From Alphaproteobacteria bacterium (GTDB lineage: Bacteria; Planctomycetota; Phycisphaerae; UBA1845), in the NCBI GenBank assembly GCA_028285105.1, contig JANQQE010000011.1:186001-250000 (forward strand): a DNA stretch of 64,000 nt, given 5' to 3'. Shown here piece after piece: positions 31,971 to 41,584 of the stretch. The notes beneath the pieces were generated by a model, which was given only the letters and a program-made list of their open reading frames with translations, had not been told where the DNA came from and did no database searches. Positions within the stretch are counted from its first letter, which is position 1. Every line of letters begins with the position of its first letter. Position numbers and translations under genes: made by a program.

Positions 31971-33185
31971 CTACAACCGAGTGAGTTCGGACTGATTCTC
32001 GGCGGACCTTTTCTTGGCCTCTTCCTCTTTGCGAAGTGCATCCTCGACGGCGGCTAACCGCTGCTCAACGAACCCGCGAATGTCATCTGCAAGTTGCGAT
32101 TCGATATCATCGCGTGGCGCAAACTTGTCGTATTCATTGCGCAACTCGATCAACACTTCCCGATCCCAAGTGTCAGCCGCATCGCGATCGAGCGACAACT
32201 TTGCGGCGCGGGCGAGCGATATCTGTGTGGCCAGTTCCGTCATCTGATGGGTCAGTCTTCCAACTTCCAAAAGTCGTCCCTGATCGGCACGACGACCGAT
32301 GAATGCAAGCCATTCGGAACAGAGATCCTGTCGAACCGGCTGCTCTACGCTTAGATCGCGCCATTGGATTTTCTGACCGGCGACCATCTGATGGACGCGT
32401 TCCAGATCGTGATGGAGAATCGTCGTCGACAGGTTGCGAGTCAACGAGAACTTGACGCCCACCGAATACGAGCGCCTCGCTCGCATCGATAAGGGAATCA
32501 TCATCACCGCCCATTGCAATGTTGGGCGGGTTTCCGGAACGGATGCGAGAATACACGGTTCATCGCCCAGCAGCGCACGAATCACCCGCAGGAAAACCTC
32601 CGGGCCGGGCGCTGCGGTTAGATGTCTCGGTGGCGTGTAGAGATCGGACGATTTGAGGGTCAACCGCCCCATCGTCGGATTAAACGATCGAGCGGCTTCA
32701 ACCGGAACCTTGCTCAGCGCCTGATCGACCCAGAACGGATTGTCATCGAACTTGCGAAAGTCTTTCGGATCGAGAATCGCCGCGTGTGTCCGCACGCGCT
32801 GACCGCCCCTCGCCGTATGCTCTACACCATCATGCTTGCAATGACAAACGCAGTATCGCCCTGAAGGCAAGGGATAAGCCAACATCCCTTCGCTCTGTGG
32901 CGAGTCGCCTGCCAGCGCACCGTGCGAGGGCGATCGGCGGGTGATCTCGGCTTTCTCATCAGGACGAATGCCAGGACTGGCCGCGACGATCCGATACCCC
33001 TCCCCCATCGGCGATTTCTGGGAAGTGAAGATCGCCTGGTCGCACTCGATTTCAATCGGTTTTGCGGCTGACGGGAGTTTGTCCGGAACCGGCGACACTT
33101 GCTGGCCGGCCGAGTGCAACTTCGACGACACGAAACCAGCCGGTCGGGCGGACGACGATTGGCTTACAGTTGGTCGGTGATCCAT
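31971..33185 (-). CDS. GAP1-like GTPase-associated protein
   Basis: The 404-residue protein is the last gene of a five-gene minus-strand operon. After a disordered N-terminus (about 1-45), residues about 46-155 contain CDQAIFTS, GEGYRIVAASPGI, RRSPSHGAL, LPSGRYCVCHC, GQRVRTHAAIL and DDNPFWV. This closely resembles, from memory, the N-terminal domain of GTPase-associated protein 1 found beside predicted conflict-system GTPases. The C-terminal 130 residues are charged helices. Its ATG overlaps the GTPase gene by 22 bases and is preceded by GGAG, so the two proteins are translationally coupled. Confidence 0.6.
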   Translation of the reverse strand: MDHRPTVSQSSSARPAGFVSSKLHSAGQQVSPVPDKLPSAAKPIEIECDQAIFTSQKSPMGEGYRIVAASPGIRPDEKAEITRRSPSHGALAGDSPQSEGMLAYPLPSGRYCVCHCKHDGVEHTARGGQRVRTHAAILDPKDFRKFDDNPFWVDQALSKVPVEAARSFNPTMGRLTLKSSDLYTPPRHLTAAPGPEVFLRVIRALLGDEPCILASVPETRPTLQWAVMMIPLSMRARRSYSVGVKFSLTRNLSTTILHHDLERVHQMVAGQKIQWRDLSVEQPVRQDLCSEWLAFIGRRADQGRLLEVGRLTHQMTELATQISLARAAKLSLDRDAADTWDREVLIELRNEYDKFAPRDDIESQLADDIRGFVEQRLAAVEDALRKEEEAKKRSAENQSELTRL

Positions 33186-34045
33186 TCGAACGGCTCCAAA
33201 ACGCCGCGCAAGGCGGTATGCAAAGGAACGGGAACCACATAATCGTCTGCGTGTCCGGAGGTTGCGTAACCGAGCGATCCAACGACGCTCGATGCAAAAA
33301 ACTCAACGTTCTCGAAACGCGATTCGCACATGTTCCAGACGCGGTTCAGATTGGCTTCAACGAATCGGGGCGGATCGTCGAACACCTCCGGACAGTAGTC
33401 GCCTTTGCACAGGACGATCGCCGTCGGCGTCTTTACCCGTTGTTCCCGCTGTCCTCCGGTCATTGCATCGATGTAACTCATCATCTTCAATGCGAAGAAG
33501 TCGGGCTGCGTCGAACCGTTCGCCGCTTGTGCCGCGTCGATCAGAACGATCAACCCTTCCGACTGATTCATCAGGCTGTTGATGACCTTGAACGTCTTGG
33601 GCGTAGCGATTTCTGCCGCCAGCGATTCACCGGCCATGTCGGGCATAACCAGATCGAACCACTGCTGACTCTGTTCCTGCATTTTGCATATCTGGTAATA
33701 CGCCCAATACCATTCGTTCGGTTCCATCGGTGTCTTGGGCGGGAACATTCGGTGAGCCATGTAATTCACGACCGTCTGCTGCAAGTCGACGCTGTATGCC
33801 CCCTTCGGTACAGCTTTGAATTCGCCCGCCCGCTGCGAGAGCATGTCCAAAAGGAAGCCCAGATAAACCGTTTTGCCGACGTTGCTTTCTCCAACAATGG
33901 TGATGACCTGCGGGTTGCGTTGCTGCGCGATCGAGTCGTGAACGATCGACATTGGCGCAGAGCACGAACCACACAGCATCGCCTCGGCTGTGTTCTCTGT
34001 GTTGCAAATCAGGCAGGTTGTCGCCTGCGCGTATGTCGTAGCCAT
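33164..34045 (-). CDS. Zinc-ribbon TRAFAC-like GTPase (DO-GTPase-like)
   Basis: The 293-residue protein has an N-terminal zinc ribbon (Cys11, Cys14, Cys25, Cys28), a P-loop GESNVGKT at 51-58, a G3-type DMAGES at 135-140 after a hydrophobic strand, a strand LIVLIDAA (164-171), and LCKGD at 211-215 at the position of the G4 (N/T)KxD motif, where Asn is replaced by Cys. This order indicates a GTPase of the kind paired with GAP1-like proteins. The start at 34045 has GGGAG 8 bases upstream; an 8-codon longer frame is less likely. The neighbour at 33185 is co-translated. Confidence 0.75.
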   Translation of the reverse strand: MATTYAQATTCLICNTENTAEAMLCGSCSAPMSIVHDSIAQQRNPQVITIVGESNVGKTVYLGFLLDMLSQRAGEFKAVPKGAYSVDLQQTVVNYMAHRMFPPKTPMEPNEWYWAYYQICKMQEQSQQWFDLVMPDMAGESLAAEIATPKTFKVINSLMNQSEGLIVLIDAAQAANGSTQPDFFALKMMSYIDAMTGGQREQRVKTPTAIVLCKGDYCPEVFDDPPRFVEANLNRVWNMCESRFENVEFFASSVVGSLGYATSGHADDYVVPVPLHTALRGVLEPFEWITDQL

Positions 34046-34095
34046 CGTCGTGTCTCCCAAGCACCACACCGAACGATCAGTGCAGTACGTTTAAG

Positions 34096-35088
34096 CTAAC
34101 CCCTGATGTCCATCGCACATCGGAACCCGACATTGTGCGCGCGAACCAGGCTGGCGAGACCGGTTCTGAAGCAACTCGTGGCCTGCGCGGGGAAGTACGT
34201 GTCATACGCTCCGCCCCGAATACTTTTCATCAACATATCTCCGACAATCGGTCGATCCTGTTCGTCGGTCAGTTCCAAATCGGAGTCGGTCCATTCCCAG
34301 ACGTTTCCAACCAATTGTGCTACACCATTGGGGGCGTCGCCGGCTTTGAATGCGCTGACTGGTGCGGTCGCCGCCATGCCGCTCGACCAAATATTACAGC
34401 GCGAACGGTCCAGCGCATCGCCCCACGGATACCGCCGCAGGATGTATGCCGAGCTTCGAATCCGCCAACTGGCCGCCACCTGCCACTCTGATTCTGTCGG
34501 CATTCGATAGCCAGCCCATTTCGCATATGCCTGTGCCTCATAAAAACTGACGCCAACAACCGGATGGTCGGCCAACAGCTTGTTGTGACGTCCGCCCTTC
34601 CAAAACCGTGGACCGGCTGACCCGGTCAGATCAACGAAATCGATCAAATGCGTCCACAAGTCCTGCGGCCAGAATTCGAGTTCTTCGTATCCACCGCAAT
34701 CGACAAAGTGCTGAAACTCGGTATTTGTGATCGGATGCTTGGAAAGCACATACGAGTTCGTTTCGACTTCCATTTCCGGACAACCGGGTGCATCGTTGAT
34801 GGTCATCGGAAGCGTCGCGCTTCCCTCGGGCACCAAGGCAAACTTGTTGTCGATCGCGTCGTTTGCCCGCTTCAATGCTGAACGAATTTCCGGATGCCCG
34901 CGCCATCGATCCGGGTTGGCTGCGATCGCACCGAAGCGACCGATTTGGAGGAACCGGCGAAGTTCGTCGCTCTCAAATTCCACCTGCTCTGCCGCCTCAA
35001 ACCCCAAGGCCTGATTCGCAGCGGTCGTCTTTTTGTTCCGCGCCTTCTGCGCAGGCTTTTGCTTTCGGGCCAGGAGTCTTAGTGGCAT
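34096..35088 (-). CDS. FGE-sulfatase (SUMF1) fold protein, probably non-catalytic
   Basis: The 330-residue protein has a basic N-terminal tail and a C-terminal formylglycine-generating-enzyme fold (about 100-330) with HPITNTEFQHFVDCGG, HPVVGVSFYEAQAYAKWAG, RMPTESEWQVAAS, YPWGDALDRSRCN, VGNVWEWT and RGGAYDTYFPA...CFRTG...VGFRC. Genuine FGE uses a cysteine pair six residues apart just after the RGGS(Y/F) motif. Here the first cysteine is missing (Thr297 region) and only Cys306 remains, so a ligand-binding rather than oxidase role is likely. GGAG lies 8 bases before the ATG. It is the third gene of the GTPase operon. Confidence 0.82.
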   Translation of the reverse strand: MPLRLLARKQKPAQKARNKKTTAANQALGFEAAEQVEFESDELRRFLQIGRFGAIAANPDRWRGHPEIRSALKRANDAIDNKFALVPEGSATLPMTINDAPGCPEMEVETNSYVLSKHPITNTEFQHFVDCGGYEELEFWPQDLWTHLIDFVDLTGSAGPRFWKGGRHNKLLADHPVVGVSFYEAQAYAKWAGYRMPTESEWQVAASWRIRSSAYILRRYPWGDALDRSRCNIWSSGMAATAPVSAFKAGDAPNGVAQLVGNVWEWTDSDLELTDEQDRPIVGDMLMKSIRGGAYDTYFPAQATSCFRTGLASLVRAHNVGFRCAMDIRG

Positions 35089-35128
35089 ATGATGGTCTCC
35101 AATTCAATCCGTCGGTGCAGCCGGTCTG

Positions 35129-36190
35129 CTAACCGATGGCCCGGCGCTTCGCATCTCGACAAAGTTTCTGGAACCGTTCCAGAGACTCGTTGGCATCCTG
35201 TTCCTGTGCGGATGGCATACCCTTGTCTGCCGGTGCCCCCTGACTGGCTGACTCTCGCGTGACCCCGTACTGCGGCAACAATTCGTCGGTCTGCTCGCTG
35301 ATCGTGTTGATCTCCACATCCAGATGCTTTTGCAACGAAGCCAAGGAAGACGATGCAGTCTGCAATTCTCGAAGCTTCACATCCCATTCCTGTTGCGAAG
35401 CTGCCAGTTGCTCGCGCTGTGACGCCAAATCCTGACGACCGGCTTCCAACTGCTGCGCGATGCTTTCCAATTCAATGCGCCGCGTTTCGGTTGCCTTCCG
35501 TTCCTGCTCGACCGCTGCGTTTTGGGCAGCGACCGCATTTTGCTGTTCGACAAGTTGCTGCTGTTGAGCGACGATGCTCTGCTCAGCTTTGGCAATTTCC
35601 TGCTGTTTGGCGGCGAGGCTCGATTTCGCCTCTTCAACTGTTGCCGATGCCTGCCCGATTTCCTTACGGGCTTCGTCAAAGTCGAGGCGTTCTTTTTCAA
35701 GCGTCATCCGCTGCTGTTCGACTTGCTGCATCGCAGCCGTGGCAGCCGACTCGCGTTTGGTCAACTCTTCGACCTGCTTGTCCATCTCGGCGAGTCGTAC
35801 GCTGGCTTGCTCGTCGCGTTGCCGGAGATCCTCAAGTTGGGACTTCTGGGTTGCGGCAAGCTGTTCGGCCTGTGCCTTGAGACTTTCGTATTCTTTCTCT
35901 CGGCCAGCGAGTTCAGCTTCACGCTTCTCAATCCGTTCGCACAATTCGAGTTGCTCGGCACTGAACGACGAGCGCTCTTCGTCGAGCCTTTTGTATTCGT
36001 CAGCCAGCGCCAGGCGACAGGCCTCCAGCGCCTTGGCACGTGCGTCAAGCAGTTCACGCAGGCCACGCATCGCGCTGACAACGTCTTGGCCCATCATTTC
36101 GATACGCTGGCTGTCAAACTCACCTTGCTGCGTTGACTGATTGCCCTGCGCATTTTGATCGTTCTTGTTCTGTTCCACTGCTGTCCCCAC
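35129..36190 (-). CDS. Long coiled-coil protein of the GTPase operon
   Basis: The 353-residue protein is almost entirely heptad-patterned Glu/Gln/Ala/Leu helix from about residue 35 to 300 (for example EKREAELAGREKEYESLKAQ), with a Gln/Asn-rich N-terminus and a short C-terminal helical segment ending in CRDAKRRAIG. No enzymatic domain. It is predicted to form a rod that could link the small basic protein to the FGE-fold and GTPase partners. The GTG start is preceded by AGGGGGG at 8 bases. Spacing to neighbours on the same strand is 36 and 40 bases. Confidence 0.72.
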   Translation of the reverse strand: MGTAVEQNKNDQNAQGNQSTQQGEFDSQRIEMMGQDVVSAMRGLRELLDARAKALEACRLALADEYKRLDEERSSFSAEQLELCERIEKREAELAGREKEYESLKAQAEQLAATQKSQLEDLRQRDEQASVRLAEMDKQVEELTKRESAATAAMQQVEQQRMTLEKERLDFDEARKEIGQASATVEEAKSSLAAKQQEIAKAEQSIVAQQQQLVEQQNAVAAQNAAVEQERKATETRRIELESIAQQLEAGRQDLASQREQLAASQQEWDVKLRELQTASSSLASLQKHLDVEINTISEQTDELLPQYGVTRESASQGAPADKGMPSAQEQDANESLERFQKLCRDAKRRAIG

Positions 36191-36226
36191 AGTTAATCCC
36201 CCCTGCCTTGCGACAACGATCGACGG

Positions 36227-36811
36227 TTACTTGTTCAACTCATTGATCATTTCTCGAACGCTTTTCTTGCCCCGCGAAAGTCGCCGCTTGATTCGGATCG
36301 ATTTGGCCACCTTCGGATCGAGTTGGGCAAGCAAGGCTTCGTCTTCCGCATCCAATTCCTCTTTGGTTTTTTCTGGTATGACCGGTGCCTTCGGCGATTC
36401 GTCAACTGGTTTTGAGTCATCCTTCGCAGCACCCTTGCGCGGGCTGGCTTTGAGTTTCGGCTTTTTCGATTTCTTGCTACCCGGAAGCGTCACGATCCCT
36501 GATACCGGTTCGGCCGGTGCCTCGCTTTTGTCCAGCGGGGCTTCGGCACAACCTTCCGGTTTCGGTGCAACTTCAACCGGTTTTGATTCTGCTCCTGGTG
36601 CCGAATGCGACGCCTCGGCGCTCGACGAGGAATCGGACTCTGCACGAATCGCCGGTTCAGCGAGGGCAACCTGCGCCAAAGCAGCACTGGCTTTGTCCAT
36701 CGCATCAACCCAAGTCGCGATTTTCTGATCCAGATCGTTGATCGCGCTTTCGATGGCACCGTCGTCTTGCGACAATACGGCGATCGCTGGATTTTGCTCT
36801 GCCCCATTCAT
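36227..36811 (-). CDS. Low-complexity protein with basic C-terminal helix, first gene of GTPase operon
   Basis: The 194-residue protein starts with a short helical region (residues 15-50, DDGAIESAINDLDQKIATWV), continues with a disordered Pro/Ala/Glu/Lys stretch of about 90 residues, and ends with a compact charged segment, LAQLDPKVAKSIRIKRRLSRGKKS, followed by VREMINEL. The last part looks like the only folded and conserved portion and may bind a partner or nucleic acid. No family recognised. It probably begins the minus-strand operon running to 31971. The ribosome-binding site is poor. Confidence 0.6.
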   Translation of the reverse strand: MNGAEQNPAIAVLSQDDGAIESAINDLDQKIATWVDAMDKASAALAQVALAEPAIRAESDSSSSAEASHSAPGAESKPVEVAPKPEGCAEAPLDKSEAPAEPVSGIVTLPGSKKSKKPKLKASPRKGAAKDDSKPVDESPKAPVIPEKTKEELDAEDEALLAQLDPKVAKSIRIKRRLSRGKKSVREMINELNK

Positions 36812-37031
36812 AATTGCGTGCGTGTCCCTTCGAGCGGGCGGGTTCTCTTACAGCGCATGCCTTTCGGCGCGCTTCGACCAGTCGCTCTGTCGAAAAATAT
36901 ACGTTTCAGTTTTGGCAAATGACGCCCTTAATTGTGGGGAATGTACTCTGGTCCAGTAACAACTTCGTTTTGTGTGCATGTAACGCCTCTTCCCCCTATG
37001 TGTTCGGTGAAGATTGACAGCGTCCACTTTG

Positions 37032-38069
37032 ATGGCTACACCATCAGCTGTGAACACCCTTAAGATCGACTTACACACGCACATTCTTCCGGAAACCTGG
37101 CCCGATCTTGTCGAACGCTACGGGTATGAAGGCTTTGTCCATTTGCACCACCACGAACCGTGCAAAGCCCGCATGATGATCGGCGACAAATGCTTTCGTA
37201 TCATCGACGACAACTGCTGGTCTGCTAAGCGTAGAATTGCCGACTGTGATCAAACAGGTGTCACCGCGCAGGTCTTGAGCACCGTCCCGGTGATGTTCAG
37301 TTATTGGGCCAAGCCGGCAGACACACTTGACCTTTCGCGCATCCTCAACGACCACATCGCTGGCATCGTCCGAGAACACCCTTCGCGATTCGTGGGGCTG
37401 GGTACGCTTCCGATGCAAGCGCCAGAATTGGCTGTCAAAGAGTTGGAGCGTTGCGTCAACGAACTCGGATTGGCAGGCATCGAAATCGGGTCGCACATCA
37501 ACGATTGGAATCTCAACGCCCCAGAGTTGTTCCCGATCTTTGAATGCGCCGCGGAATTGGGAGCCGCCGTTTTCGTTCATCCGTGGGACATGGCCGGCAA
37601 GGAGCGCATGCCGAACTACTGGTTGCCCTGGCTCGTCGGCATGCCGGCAGAAACGTCGCTGGCGATTTGTTCGATGATCTTCGGTGGCGTGTTTGAACGA
37701 CTCCCGAAACTGAGGGTGGCATTTGCGCATGGTGGCGGATCGTTTCCGGCAACGATCGGACGAATTGAACATGGTTTTAACTGTCGTCCCGATCTGTGCG
37801 CCATCGACAACGATGTAAATCCCCGCGAGTACCTGGGCAAGTTTTACTTTGATTCCCTCGTACACGACGCCGAAGTGCTTCGCTATCTCATCAAGCTTGC
37901 CGGGGCCAACCGCATCGCGCTGGGTTCGGACTATCCATTCCCGCTAGGAGAGGCCGAGCCGGGCAAACTCATCGAGTCGATGGACGACCTTGACGGCGAT
38001 ACAAAATCACTTCTATTGAGCGGAACGGCTATGGAGTTTTTGGGCGTTTCCAGAGATCGCTTTCTCTAG
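37032..38069 (+). CDS. acmsd: Aminocarboxymuconate-semialdehyde decarboxylase-like amidohydrolase
   Basis: The 345-residue metal-dependent enzyme has the N-terminal His-X-His metal site (His15 and His17 in DLHTH), [17 protein letters not shown] with a further histidine, FAHGGGSFP and the C-terminal metal aspartate in [11 protein letters not shown]. This is the ACMSD family, which decarboxylates 2-amino-3-carboxymuconate semialdehyde and diverts it from quinolinate. A TTG 18 bases upstream is an alternative start. It heads a cluster with kynU, kmo, kynA and kynB, which strongly supports the assignment. The dioxygenase producing its substrate is missing here. Confidence 0.88.
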
Positions 38070-38092
38070 ACGTCGTCAGTCTTCGCAGGTAC

Positions 38093-38121
38093 TTCGCAAG
38101 CCAATCTTTTGCGGTTATCAT
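38093..38121 (+). promoter_or_regulatory. Possible promoter giving a near-leaderless kynU transcript
   Basis: TTCGCA (38093-38098, 4 of 6), a 17-base spacer and TATCAT (38116-38121, 5 of 6) end 6 bases before the kynU ATG at 38128. No Shine-Dalgarno sequence precedes that ATG. Consensus match only. Confidence 0.35.
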
Positions 38122-38127
38122 TTGATA

Positions 38128-39441
38128 ATGCACGCCGAGCATCGCACGAATACGGCTTATGATTCGACCGACCGCAGCTTTGCGGAGCAGATGGATGCTG
38201 CCGACCCGCTGCGATCATTTCGCAATCAGTTTTGCATTCCCAAAATCGACGACGGCAACGAGGTCATCTATTTCGCAGGCAACTCACTTGGCTTGCTCCC
38301 CAAAACCGTTGCTCCGATCGTCGAACGTGAATTGGAAGACTGGGCTCGATTGGCCGTGGATGCCCACTTCGACGGACGTCAGCCCTGGTATGACTACCAT
38401 GAACAGTTTCGCGAGTCGGCTTCGCGTATCGTGGGGACGAACGCGAACGAAGTCGTGCTGATGAACAGCCTGACTGTGAACCTACATCTGATGTTGGTTT
38501 CGTTTTACCGCCCTACTTCGCAGCGCTACAAGATCATCACCGATTGGCCGTCATTCCCGTCGGATATCTACGCCGTTGATTCGCAGATTCGCTTTCACGG
38601 TTACGATCCGGAGCAAGCGTTCGTCAAAGTTTGTCCAAAAGAAGGCAAGCATCTGATCGACATGGATGACTTTGAAAACCAAATCGAAGCGCACGGTTCG
38701 CAAGCCGCATTGGTGATGATCAGCGGCGTCAACTACTTCACGGGTCAGTTTTACGATCTAAAGCGGTTGACCGATGCCGCCCATCGCGCCGGTTGCCTGA
38801 TCGGCATCGACCTCGCTCATGCGGCTGGCAATGTCCCGTTGAAACTTCACGAGTGGGATGTCGATTTCGCCGTGTGGTGCAATTACAAATATCTTAACAG
38901 TGGTCCGGGAACGGTCGGTGGGTGCTTCGTTCATGAACGCCACGCCAGGAACCGCGAGTTGAAACGCTTTGCCGGCTGGTGGGGAAACGATCCGAAGCAG
39001 CGATTCAAAATGCACCTTCAACCGCAATTCGTTCCAGTCGATTCCGCCGACGGATGGCAAATCAGCAATCCGCCCATACTCGCGATGGCAGCCATCCGTG
39101 GTTCCTACGATCTGTTCAATCAAACATCGATGGAATTGCTCCGCAAAAAATCCGAACGCCTGACCGGGTATCTGGAATTCTTGATCGATCAACAAGGGCA
39201 GGATCGCTTTGAGGTCATCACGCCGCGCGATCCTCAAGAGCGCGGATGCCAGTTGTCCATTCTAGCCAAGGATAAACCCAAGGAATTGTTCACAGCGCTT
39301 CATCGTGCCAATGCAGTAGGTGATTTCCGCGAGCCGAACGTGATTCGTGTCGCGCCGGTTCCATTGTACAACTCGTTCGTCGATGTCTGGCGGTTCGCCC
39401 AGGTGCTGGCGAAAGCGGGAGGCGGCGAAGTCGATGGGTAA
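38128..39441 (+). CDS. kynU: Kynureninase
   Basis: The 437-residue PLP enzyme has YFAGNSLGL near residue 49, DWPSFPSDIYA (about 139-149), GIDLAHAAGNVPL (226-238), and the PLP lysine Lys254 in WCNYKYLNSGPG, all kynureninase hallmarks. It cleaves kynurenine or 3-hydroxykynurenine to (hydroxy)anthranilate and alanine. With kmo next to it, 3-hydroxykynurenine is the likely substrate. It overlaps kmo by 8 bases. The ATG start is preferred over a TTG two codons earlier. Confidence 0.95.
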   Translation: MHAEHRTNTAYDSTDRSFAEQMDAADPLRSFRNQFCIPKIDDGNEVIYFAGNSLGLLPKTVAPIVERELEDWARLAVDAHFDGRQPWYDYHEQFRESASRIVGTNANEVVLMNSLTVNLHLMLVSFYRPTSQRYKIITDWPSFPSDIYAVDSQIRFHGYDPEQAFVKVCPKEGKHLIDMDDFENQIEAHGSQAALVMISGVNYFTGQFYDLKRLTDAAHRAGCLIGIDLAHAAGNVPLKLHEWDVDFAVWCNYKYLNSGPGTVGGCFVHERHARNRELKRFAGWWGNDPKQRFKMHLQPQFVPVDSADGWQISNPPILAMAAIRGSYDLFNQTSMELLRKKSERLTGYLEFLIDQQGQDRFEVITPRDPQERGCQLSILAKDKPKELFTALHRANAVGDFREPNVIRVAPVPLYNSFVDVWRFAQVLAKAGGGEVDG

Positions 39442-40795
39442 CGCGGCAAATGGTCAACGAATCACGATTGTCGGTGCGGGGTTGGCAGGGGCACTTCTGG
39501 CGACGCGATTGGGCAATGCCGGTTTCGAGGTCAGCGTTTACGAATCGCGCCCCGATCCACGCGGCAAAGACATGGTGGCTGGCAGATCGATCAACCTGGC
39601 GCTTTCGGCGCGAGGGTTTCATGCGTTGGGGCAAGTTGGATTGACCAACCGCATCATGGAATTGTCCACACCGATGCGCGGCAGGATGATGCATTCCGTT
39701 GAAGGCCATCTACAATTTCAGCCCTACAGTGCCCATGCCGACGACGTTATTCACTCTGTCTCGCGAGCCGATTTGAACATGGCGCTGATCGCAACCGCTG
39801 ACGAAGTACCCAACGTAGATTTTCATTTCGATCACAAATGCGTGGGAACGGATTTCGACAGTGGCGTTGCAACATTCGTTCATCGATCGAATGACAGCAA
39901 AGTTGAAAGCAATCGCGGATTGGTCATTGGATGCGACGGTGCATATTCATCCGTTCGTAAAAAGATGCAGCGCCTCGAACGATTCGATTTCAGCCAGCAG
40001 TATTTGAAACATGGATACAAGGAGTTGTGCATCCCAGCCAACATCGACGGCACGCACGCCCTCGAACCCAATGCCCTGCACATCTGGCCGCGACAATCGT
40101 ACATGATGATCGCCCTGCCCAACCTGGATGGATCGTTTACATGCACACTGTTTCTAGCGTTTGAAAGCAACAGCGGTCCCGCATTTTCAAAGCTCAAAAA
40201 TGAACAGAACGTTAGTGCATTCTTTGAAGAACAGTTCGCCGATGCCAAAAAACTCATGCCGACTTTGATCGAGGAATTCTTTGAAAACCCGACCAGTTCG
40301 CTCGTCACCATTCGCTGCGCGCCTTGGTACCATGAAGACAAAGTGGCGCTATTGGGCGACGCAGCCCACGCGGTCGTTCCCTTTTATGGCCAGGGTGCAA
40401 ACGCAGCATTCGGCGATTGCGCTAAACTCGGCGACCTGTTAATCGAACAAAAGAACATGGGCAAAAGAATTTCGACCGCAACGTTGAGCGCGTATTTCGA
40501 TAAGCGAAAGATTCACACCGACGCGCTTGCGGACCTGGCTGTCGCTAATTTTATCGAGATGCGCGATCACACCGGATCACGCATCTTTCTTCTCAAGAAA
40601 AAACTCGAACAAACGCTGCATCGATTCTTTCCAAAATCGTTCTTGCCTCTTTATTCGATGGTTTCCTTCTCGTGTATCCCCTATCGGGACGCTTTGGATC
40701 GGGCCAATCGGCAGTGGCGTTTCGTCCGGCGGATCGCGCTTGCAGCCGCCGTCGCAATCATTACGCTGATCGCTTGGTTCGTGACCCTCGGATAA
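39434..40795 (+). CDS. kmo: Kynurenine 3-monooxygenase with C-terminal membrane anchor
   Basis: The 453-residue FAD monooxygenase has the dinucleotide-binding GAGLAGALLA (14-23) with Glu37 to bind the FAD ribose, GRSINLALSARG (about 55), a CDGAYSSVRKKM region and LLGDAAHAVVPFYGQGANAAFGD (about 310-332). It hydroxylates kynurenine using NADPH and O2. Residues 433-452 form a hydrophobic helix preceded by RRIA, a tail anchor like that of eukaryotic KMO. The ATG lies within the last 8 bases of kynU and the next gene follows 6 bases later. Confidence 0.93.
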   Translation: MGNAANGQRITIVGAGLAGALLATRLGNAGFEVSVYESRPDPRGKDMVAGRSINLALSARGFHALGQVGLTNRIMELSTPMRGRMMHSVEGHLQFQPYSAHADDVIHSVSRADLNMALIATADEVPNVDFHFDHKCVGTDFDSGVATFVHRSNDSKVESNRGLVIGCDGAYSSVRKKMQRLERFDFSQQYLKHGYKELCIPANIDGTHALEPNALHIWPRQSYMMIALPNLDGSFTCTLFLAFESNSGPAFSKLKNEQNVSAFFEEQFADAKKLMPTLIEEFFENPTSSLVTIRCAPWYHEDKVALLGDAAHAVVPFYGQGANAAFGDCAKLGDLLIEQKNMGKRISTATLSAYFDKRKIHTDALADLAVANFIEMRDHTGSRIFLLKKKLEQTLHRFFPKSFLPLYSMVSFSCIPYRDALDRANRQWRFVRRIALAAAVAIITLIAWFVTLG

Positions 40796-40801
40796 ACCAC
40801 C

Positions 40802-41584
40802 ATGCCCATGAACTACGCTGAGTATCTGAAAGTAGACCAGTTGCTGCAATTGCAGCAGGTGCGTTCCGAGCCACCGGAACACGATGAGACGCTGTTTATT
40901 ATCATTCACCAAGTCTACGAGCTATGGTTCAAACAATTGTTGCACGAATTCGATCGCCTTAAATCCGAGTTTTCAAACAACGATCTATACGGCGCGATCC
41001 ATCGGTTGGGCCGAACGCGCACGATCATGAAAACGCTCGTGTCGCAGTTGGACATTCTCGAAACCATGACACCCATGTCGTTCGCGAGTTTTCGCGATCG
41101 TCTCGAAGAGGCGTCCGGATTTCAGTCGGCACAGTTTCGCGAGATGGAATTCGTCCTGGGTTACAAGCGGGCCAAGACGATTGAATTTGTCCCCGAAAGT
41201 TCGCCTAGTCGCGCAAGGCTCGTCAAGCGCTTGAACGAAAGAACGGTGGTCGATTGCTTTTACGAATTCCTGGCACACCATGGCGTCGCAACACCGGCTG
41301 AGTTGTTGAACCGCGATCTTACGAAGCCAACGGAACCCAACAAGGATATTCAGGAGGGGATCCTTAAACTCTATCGCGAGCAACCGCAACTCGCGATTCT
41401 GTTTGAACAGATGGTCGATTACGATGAAGGCCAACAGGAATGGCGCTACCGCCACGTCAAAATGGTCGAACGTACCATCGGCAACAAGCAAGGCACCGGT
41501 GGTTCGCTTGGCGTTGCGTTTCTAAAGCAGTCACTGTTTAAGTCGATCTTCCCGGATTTGTGGGAAGTGCGTCACAAATTCTAA
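40802..41584 (+). CDS. kynA: Tryptophan 2,3-dioxygenase
   Basis: The 260-residue haem enzyme has FIIIHQVYELWFKQLLHE with the active-site His36, a RLGRTRTIMKTLVSQLDILETMTP segment and RHVKMVERTIGNKQGTGGS with the haem-ligand His218. It oxidises tryptophan to N-formylkynurenine, the first step of the pathway. It is somewhat shorter than characterised bacterial enzymes (about 280-300 residues), mainly at the ends, but all catalytic elements are present. It is translationally close to kmo. Confidence 0.95.
   Translation: MPMNYAEYLKVDQLLQLQQVRSEPPEHDETLFIIIHQVYELWFKQLLHEFDRLKSEFSNNDLYGAIHRLGRTRTIMKTLVSQLDILETMTPMSFASFRDRLEEASGFQSAQFREMEFVLGYKRAKTIEFVPESSPSRARLVKRLNERTVVDCFYEFLAHHGVATPAELLNRDLTKPTEPNKDIQEGILKLYREQPQLAILFEQMVDYDEGQQEWRYRHVKMVERTIGNKQGTGGSLGVAFLKQSLFKSIFPDLWEVRHKF

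What the first reader, a model, noticed from the sequence alone, without database searches (positions are those of the whole stretch)
31971..36811. Five-gene operon: basic-tail protein, coiled coil, FGE-fold, zinc-ribbon GTPase and GAP1-like protein
Five co-directional genes with gaps of 36-50 bases and one overlap encode a set with no metabolic enzyme: a GTPase with an added zinc ribbon, a GAP1-like partner translationally coupled to it, an FGE-fold protein, a long coiled coil and a small basic protein. GTPase plus GAP1-type N-terminal domains plus FGE-like domains are known from predicted NTP-dependent conflict/immunity systems described by comparative genomics. The combination with a rod-like coiled coil and a low-complexity first protein was not recognised as a named system.
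Basis: partly seen in the sequence, partly recalled or inferred. Interest (0 to 1): 0.8.

Follow-up and report, generated by a model that had tools for sequence, protein, structure and literature searches.

The report
GTPase-regulated coiled-coil operon in planctomycetes
Five neighbouring genes in an uncultured planctomycete lineage encode a GTPase switch, its probable regulator, a non-catalytic binding protein and coiled-coil rods with membrane-seeking tails, and they are kept together and strongly conserved, so they look like core cell machinery rather than a mobile immune system.

Summary
The operon is real. On the minus strand, 36811 to 31971, five genes encode: A, a linker-rich protein with a basic C-terminal motif; B, a coiled coil; C, an FGE-fold protein without the FGE catalytic cysteines; D, a zinc-ribbon DO-GTPase; and E, a GAP1-N2 protein. 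D and E pass the Pfam cut-offs.

It belongs to a published kind. Kaur et al. 2020 (PMC7159879) described GAP1-N2/DO-GTPase systems and mention planctomycete versions with this fold. They predicted mobile conflict systems.

My data point elsewhere. D is in 76 of 114 genomes of the order, 47 of 51 in the family, nearly always single-copy. D is the slowest-evolving gene of its neighbourhood. C-D-E stay adjacent while flanking genes change.

New here: B and A carry conserved C-terminal motifs across families. In most of the family A is replaced by an 820-1,630-residue coiled coil with the same ends. C begins with a bactofilin-like membrane-targeting motif. The predicted structure of E resembles eukaryotic longin-DENN GTPase regulators, weakly in score but with matching domain order.

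Best reading: a GTPase-controlled, membrane-attached coiled-coil scaffold. Function is untested. One clear horizontal replacement shows that the operon can still move.

The parts
36227..36811 (-). Gene A, 194 aa: N-terminal helix (DDGAIESAINDLDQKIATWVDAM), Pro/Ala/Glu linker, conserved C-terminal basic motif (LDPKVAKSIRIKRRLSRGKKSVREMI). Relatives end in a K/R-W(W/F)-R tail; the window's genus lacks it.
   Evidence: ORF; no Pfam family; relatives and motif; net charge -3 overall
35129..36190 (-). Gene B, 353 aa (GTG start): low-complexity helical coiled coil ending in a conserved motif, ESLERFQKLCRDAKRRAIG
   Evidence: Only generic coiled-coil matches; C-terminal motif in 58 of 76 loci versus 60 of 10,032 ORFs; counterpart in distant planctomycetes
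34096..35088 (-). Gene C, 330 aa: FGE/SUMF1-fold protein lacking the FGE catalytic cysteines, with an N-terminal hydrophobic-basic motif (MPLRLLARKQK; consensus M[AG]LxLFSRK)
   Evidence: Pfam FGE-sulfatase 1.2e-38; alignment to solved FGE and EgtB; N-terminal motif in 33 of 40 relatives versus 39 of 858 background ORFs
33164..34045 (-). Gene D, 293 aa: single-copy DO-GTPase with N-terminal zinc ribbon (C11, C14, C25, C28), P-loop 52-59, DxxGE 136-140, KxD 214-216
   Evidence: Pfam DO-GTPase1/2 above cut-off; invariant motifs; lowest dN of the region
31971..33185 (-). Gene E, 404 aa: GAP1-N2 protein; predicted longin-like N-domain (43-158), alpha/beta M-domain (175-277), helical C-domain (290-403); invariant R126 in the loop between two predicted strands
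   Evidence: Pfam GAP1-N2 in 21 of 21 homologues; AlphaFold2 pLDDT 85; Foldseek; R126 in 28 of 28
33164..33185 (-). 22-base overlap of D end and E start, consistent with translational coupling
   Evidence: Sequence; a start codon at -22 in most relatives, though it overlaps a conserved Glu-Trp codon pair, so coincidence is possible

Best explanation
The operon encodes a GTPase-controlled, membrane-attached coiled-coil scaffold that is core machinery of this planctomycete lineage. D is the nucleotide switch. E is its dedicated regulator, most likely a GTPase-activating protein, using a longin-like N-domain and possibly the invariant loop arginine R126. C is a non-catalytic FGE-fold adaptor, held at the membrane by its N-terminal hydrophobic-basic peptide. 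B and A (or the giant coiled coil that replaces A) form rods. The rods' conserved C-terminal peptides dock onto the C/D/E core, and the K/R-W-W/F-R tail of most A proteins touches the membrane. GTP binding and hydrolysis by D would control assembly or attachment of the rods. Shown here: gene content, linkage, conserved motifs, intact GTPase motifs, missing FGE cysteines, conservation pattern. Inferred: membrane attachment, GAP activity, docking and the scaffold role.
For: C-D-E is contiguous in all 40 loci examined, with B (and A) upstream where detected. B-C-D-E persists in distant families f70/f37 (D about 300 bits). Flanking genes beyond the operon are mostly not shared between genera. D is in 76 of 114 genomes of the order, 47 of 51 in the family, almost always single-copy. 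D is the most conserved gene of the region (96-98% identity to three congeners, omega 0.013-0.025; flanking genes 63-92%). B ends in F.KL.RD.KR in 58 of 76 loci versus 60 of 10,032 ORFs; A or the giant protein shares an LD..T...(R/K).(R/K)(R/K)L motif, with a basic-aromatic tail in 30 of 34. Giant coiled coils of 824-1,632 aa share these ends. C's N-terminus resembles the tested bactofilin consensus MFSKKKK (PMC12448750). E: 3-domain model, pLDDT 85; Foldseek ranks 1, 2, 4 and 5 are longin-DENN GTPase regulators. R126 is invariant in 28 of 28, including distant ones. In three related loci without detectable E, the DxxGE glutamate of D is alanine.
Against: No function has been tested. Foldseek E-values are modest (3e-4 to 3e-3) and TM-scores low (0.16-0.34), so the DENN resemblance rests on partial and domain-order agreement. 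Profile searches find no sequence relation to any DENN or TagF protein. My simple heptad test is weak for B of the window (0.11 of windows, 0.05 expected). The window's genus has lost A's aromatic tail. None of the five proteins has a transmembrane-like segment, so membrane contact rests on short peptides. The operon is patchy in family f4 and absent from three f2 genomes, so it is not essential to the whole order.
Confidence: 0.45

Rival explanations
1. It is an NTP-dependent conflict (immunity or cell-death) system as proposed for DO-GTPase/GAP1 loci: E senses an invader, D sets the threshold, and the FGE-fold protein and coiled coil act as non-enzymatic effectors.
For: Same core pair and a planctomycete FGE-fold component as in Kaur et al. 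2020. A and E evolve faster than the rest (omega 0.13-0.34 and 0.06-0.15). The operon has been replaced horizontally at least once (AU p 3e-92) and is patchy in family f4.
Against: Near-universal and single-copy in the family; C is 43-59% identical across genera and families with many invariant residues and no hypervariable region; no reverse transcriptase on the contig; no PADLOC family beyond generic coiled-coil matches; no toxin, nuclease, pore or FNIII gene in the operon; every gene under purifying selection.
Confidence: 0.22
2. It is an envelope-stress or envelope-assembly module: the GTPase and FGE-fold protein monitor the cytoplasmic membrane, and the coiled coils brace it under stress, as in PSP-type systems.
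For: A DO-GTPase occurs in some pspFABC operons and is predicted to act in membrane stress (PMC11237479). C's N-terminus and A's tail are membrane-peptide-like.
Against: No PspA-type gene or stress regulator is adjacent to the window operon. The only direct evidence is analogy.
Confidence: 0.2
3. It is a cell-polarity or spatial switch analogous to MglA-MglB: D positions client machinery at one cell site, E clears it by GTP hydrolysis, and the coiled coils are the landmark.
For: The longin and roadblock folds are related and both serve GTPases (PMC3521125); E's predicted N-domain has longin topology; single-copy GTPase plus dedicated partner.
Against: No roadblock family match in E and no motility or pilus genes linked to the operon.
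Confidence: 0.1

Closest known systems
GAP1-N2-type DO-GTPase systems (Kaur et al. 2020, eLife 9:e52696, PMC7159879)
   Same: Zinc-ribbon DO-GTPase with DxxGE, GAP1-N2 gene directly downstream, FGE (FGS) fold protein reported in planctomycetes
   Different: One GTPase only, no FNIII protein, no transmembrane part, fixed rather than variable partners, two coiled-coil partners with conserved terminal peptides, core distribution in a family
Eukaryotic longin-DENN GTPase regulators (C9orf72-SMCR8, FLCN-FNIP2, DENND10)
   Same: Predicted order longin-like, alpha/beta, helical; top Foldseek hits for E; encoded with a GTPase; conserved arginine in the longin-like domain
   Different: No detectable sequence similarity; low TM-scores; partner is a DO-GTPase, not a Rab, Rag or Arf; activity untested
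Formylglycine-generating enzyme, EgtB and sulfatase-modifying factor 2
   Same: C has the FGE fold family (Pfam 1e-38; solved EgtB 3e-33, FGE 6e-27)
   Different: C lacks the two FGE catalytic cysteines and has no EgtB DinB-type N-terminal domain
Bactofilin membrane-targeting peptide (PMC12448750)
   Same: C begins M-x-(L/F)-x-(L/F)-F-S-R/K-K, like consensus MFSKKKK
   Different: C is not a bactofilin; the peptide's activity is inferred
TagF (type VI secretion regulator)
   Same: Foldseek hit to E, probability 0.99
   Different: No profile-profile similarity; no T6SS genes in the operon

Membership tests
GAP1-N2 DO-GTPase system | DO-GTPase with P-loop, DxxGE and zinc ribbon | tested here: met
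   Pfam above cut-off; motifs invariant in 21 homologues
GAP1-N2 DO-GTPase system | GAP1-N2 protein encoded directly downstream | tested here: met
   PF20013 2e-9 above cut-off; 21 of 21 homologues
GAP1-N2 DO-GTPase system | GAP1 has three globular domains (N, M, C) | tested here: met
   Three regions in the AlphaFold2 model, pLDDT 85; M and C have no Pfam match
GAP1-N2 DO-GTPase system | FNIII-repeat protein in the neighbourhood | tested here: not met
   None of the five proteins has an FNIII match; the neighbours are a GNAT-like gene and an amidohydrolase-like gene
GAP1-N2 DO-GTPase system | Variable effector component | tested here: not met
   Same C-D-E in all loci, C 43-91% identical to the window protein
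GAP1-N2 DO-GTPase system | Mobile gene neighbourhood | tested here: inconclusive
   Near-universal in the family, but one strongly supported horizontal replacement
Formylglycine-generating enzyme | Two catalytic cysteines after the RGGS motif | tested here: not met
   C has RGGAYDTYFPAQATSCFRTG where solved FGE has RGGSYLCHDSYCNRYR; which cysteines are catalytic is established knowledge
EgtB/OvoA/SenA sulfoxide or selenoxide synthase | DinB-type metal-binding N-terminal domain | tested here: not met
   No DinB family match in C; match covers only the FGE-like part
Longin-DENN module | Longin, DENN, d-DENN domains in that order | tested here: inconclusive
   Secondary-structure order fits; Foldseek E 3e-4 to 3e-3 but TM 0.16-0.30 for DENN hits
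Longin-DENN module | Sequence homology to DENN proteins | tested here: not met
   No DENN match in Pfam or in the PDB profile search
Longin-DENN module | GEF or GAP activity on a GTPase | not testable with these tools
   Needs purified D and E
MglB/Roadblock GAP | Roadblock (Robl_LC7) domain | tested here: not met
   No match in Pfam scans of 21 E proteins

The most novel reading that the evidence does not exclude
GAP1 proteins are a bacterial longin-DENN-type GTPase regulator. In these planctomycetes they control a GTPase that switches giant coiled-coil, membrane-tethered rods, a bacterial counterpart in design to eukaryotic GTPase, DENN and golgin tethering.
Probability: 0.15. Interest if true: 0.92.

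Novelty: new variant of a known kind. Interest (0 to 1): 0.6.

Why it matters
DO-GTPase/GAP1 systems are, in the literature I could search, known only from comparative genomics, and were filed as mobile conflict systems. A lineage where the same core pair is near-universal, single-copy and tied to coiled-coil rods with membrane-seeking ends suggests that at least one branch is cell-organising machinery. It also gives GAP1 a testable biochemical role: a longin-like GTPase-activating protein with a candidate arginine. If the longin-DENN resemblance holds, it bears on the origin of a regulator class described as eukaryotic.

Tried and rejected
Tried and led nowhere: E against PDB chains with a profile and E against a TagF alignment by hhalign gave nothing. 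D against PDB gave only zinc-ribbon noise. The AlphaFold2 model of C was poor (pLDDT 64), so I did not search with it. Foldseek of E against viral models gave no match better than 1e-2; it serves as a background, although a viral longin protein (synaptobrevin) ranked second. PADLOC matches to B are generic coiled-coil similarity. Rejected: FGE or EgtB enzyme activity for C (missing cysteines, no DinB domain); DGR-diversified FGE (no reverse transcriptase on the contig, C conserved); that the operon sits in a variable island in its own genus (flanks are shared by its congeners); that inheritance is purely vertical. For the window's own genus horizontal origin is not settled: family monophyly on C+D is not rejected (p 0.14).
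Full report
WHAT IS THERE. On the minus strand, five ORFs run A (36811-36227), B (36190-35129), C (35088-34096), D (34045-33164) and E (33185-31971), with gaps of 36, 40 and 50 bases and a 22-base D/E overlap. Pfam places C in FGE-sulfatase (1.2e-38), D in DO-GTPase1 and DO-GTPase2 (1e-11, 3e-10) and E in GAP1-N2 (2e-9), all above cut-off. A and B have no specific family. The closest named records include Phycisphaerales bacterium UBA1845 (96% identity in D), so the window comes from a Phycisphaerae planctomycete.

DISTRIBUTION. D occurs in 76 of 114 genomes of the order, including 47 of 51 in the family, with one copy in nearly all. It is not found in the other sampled families of the class. 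More distant versions (about 300 bits) occur in two other planctomycete families, f70 and f37, and at about 30% identity in three named planctomycete MAGs, L145-L147. C, D and E are contiguous in all 40 loci of the order that I read, and also in f70/f37. Genes outside the operon are mostly not shared between genera, except within subclades. The operon is therefore the unit that is kept.

SELECTION. Against four congeners, D is 90-98% identical (omega 0.013-0.052, dS near or above saturation, so the ratios are rough). C is 81-91%, B 64-86%, E 59-79%, A 45-63%. The flanking genes (lgt, glycosyltransferase, kynurenine-pathway genes) are 63-92%. D is the most conserved gene of the region, and no gene shows positive selection at this level.

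HISTORY. On an rpoB tree the family f1 is one clade (100/99). On the C+D tree, most of f1 forms one group (type I). The window's genus and G009 of f1 group with families f3, f4, f5 and f8 (type II, 100/100). Placing G009's C+D with its rpoB sisters is rejected (AU p 3e-92), so one replacement by horizontal transfer is clear. Holding all f1 together on C+D is not rejected (p 0.14), so transfer into the window's own genus is not established.

COILED-COIL PARTNERS. B ends in a conserved peptide, (S/A)xERFQKLCRDAKRRAIG or AxQFRKLRRDAKRRAIG. A pattern for it matches in 58 of 76 loci (5 of the others are cut by the contig end), against 60 of 10,032 ORFs in the same loci. In f70/f37 the equivalent reads VMAQFAKLQRDxxRRR. 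A has an N-terminal helix, a linker and a C-terminal motif, LDPETAKAIRVMRRL...KSVRELL, followed in 30 of 34 detected cases by a basic-aromatic tail such as KKRSWWxRG. The four exceptions are the window's genus. In most of f1, A is absent and a divergently transcribed coiled coil of 824-1,632 residues has a similar N-terminal helix and the same C-terminal motif and tail. I read this as a giant form of A; homology rests on the ends only.

C AND MEMBRANE. C lacks the two FGE catalytic cysteines: RGGAYDTYFPAQATSCFRTG stands where FGE has RGGSYLCHDSYCNRYR. It has no DinB-type domain. Its polar residues are nevertheless highly conserved, even in f70/f37, so it probably binds something specific. Its N-terminus (MALxLFSRKK type) matches a simple motif in 33 of 40 relatives versus 39 of 858 background ORFs, and resembles the tested bactofilin membrane-targeting consensus MFSKKKK (PMC12448750). 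No protein of the operon has a transmembrane-like segment.

E. The AlphaFold2 model from 21 homologues is good (pLDDT 85, pTM 0.81). The order of elements is beta-beta-alpha-beta-beta-beta-alpha-alpha (43-158), then an alpha/beta region with five strands (175-277), then helices (290-403). That is the domain order described for longin, DENN and d-DENN, with a five-stranded DENN sheet and a helical d-DENN (PMC3521125). Foldseek against PDB ranks C9orf72-SMCR8, FLCN-FNIP2, TagF, FLCN GAP complex and DENND10 first to fifth (E 3e-4 to 3e-3; TM 0.16-0.41). Kaur et al. do not mention longin, roadblock or DENN. The sequence-level tests were negative. I treat the relation as a lead. FLCN and SMCR8 share an arginine finger in this domain (PMC8336837). 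In E, R126 lies in the loop between two predicted strands and is invariant in 28 of 28 homologues, as are R235 and R250.

A NATURAL EXPERIMENT. In three related genomes with C-D but no detectable E, D has DxxGA instead of DxxGE, while all 28 D proteins with an E keep the glutamate. This is one lineage, and E may simply be too divergent to find.

VERDICT. The operon is a member, by its core pair, of the published GAP1-N2 DO-GTPase kind, and planctomycete versions with this FGE-type domain were already mentioned. It differs in having fixed coiled-coil partners with conserved terminal peptides, no FNIII or variable effector, and core-like conservation. I favour a GTPase-controlled membrane-attached scaffold (0.45) over a conflict system (0.22).

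Noticed in passing
37014-41584, + strand: Next to the operon, on the other strand, lies a run that looks like a kynurenine pathway: amidohydrolase (ACMSD-like), kynureninase-like, kynurenine monooxygenase-like and tryptophan 2,3-dioxygenase-like ORFs.
   Followed up: no
L145-L147: Three planctomycete loci have FGE-fold plus DO-GTPase but no GAP1 detectable in the genome, and their GTPase has DxxGA instead of DxxGE.
   Followed up: partly
L046-L071 (most f1 loci), upstream of gene B: Giant coiled-coil genes of about 950-1,630 codons are transcribed divergently from B and share A's terminal motifs.
   Followed up: partly
E model: TagF, a type VI secretion regulator, is a high-probability fold match to GAP1, although no sequence relation was detectable.
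   Followed up: partly
G054:C19:176591-177091 and G001:C70:1739-2176: Weak second DO-GTPase-like matches in two relatives, outside the operon.
   Followed up: no
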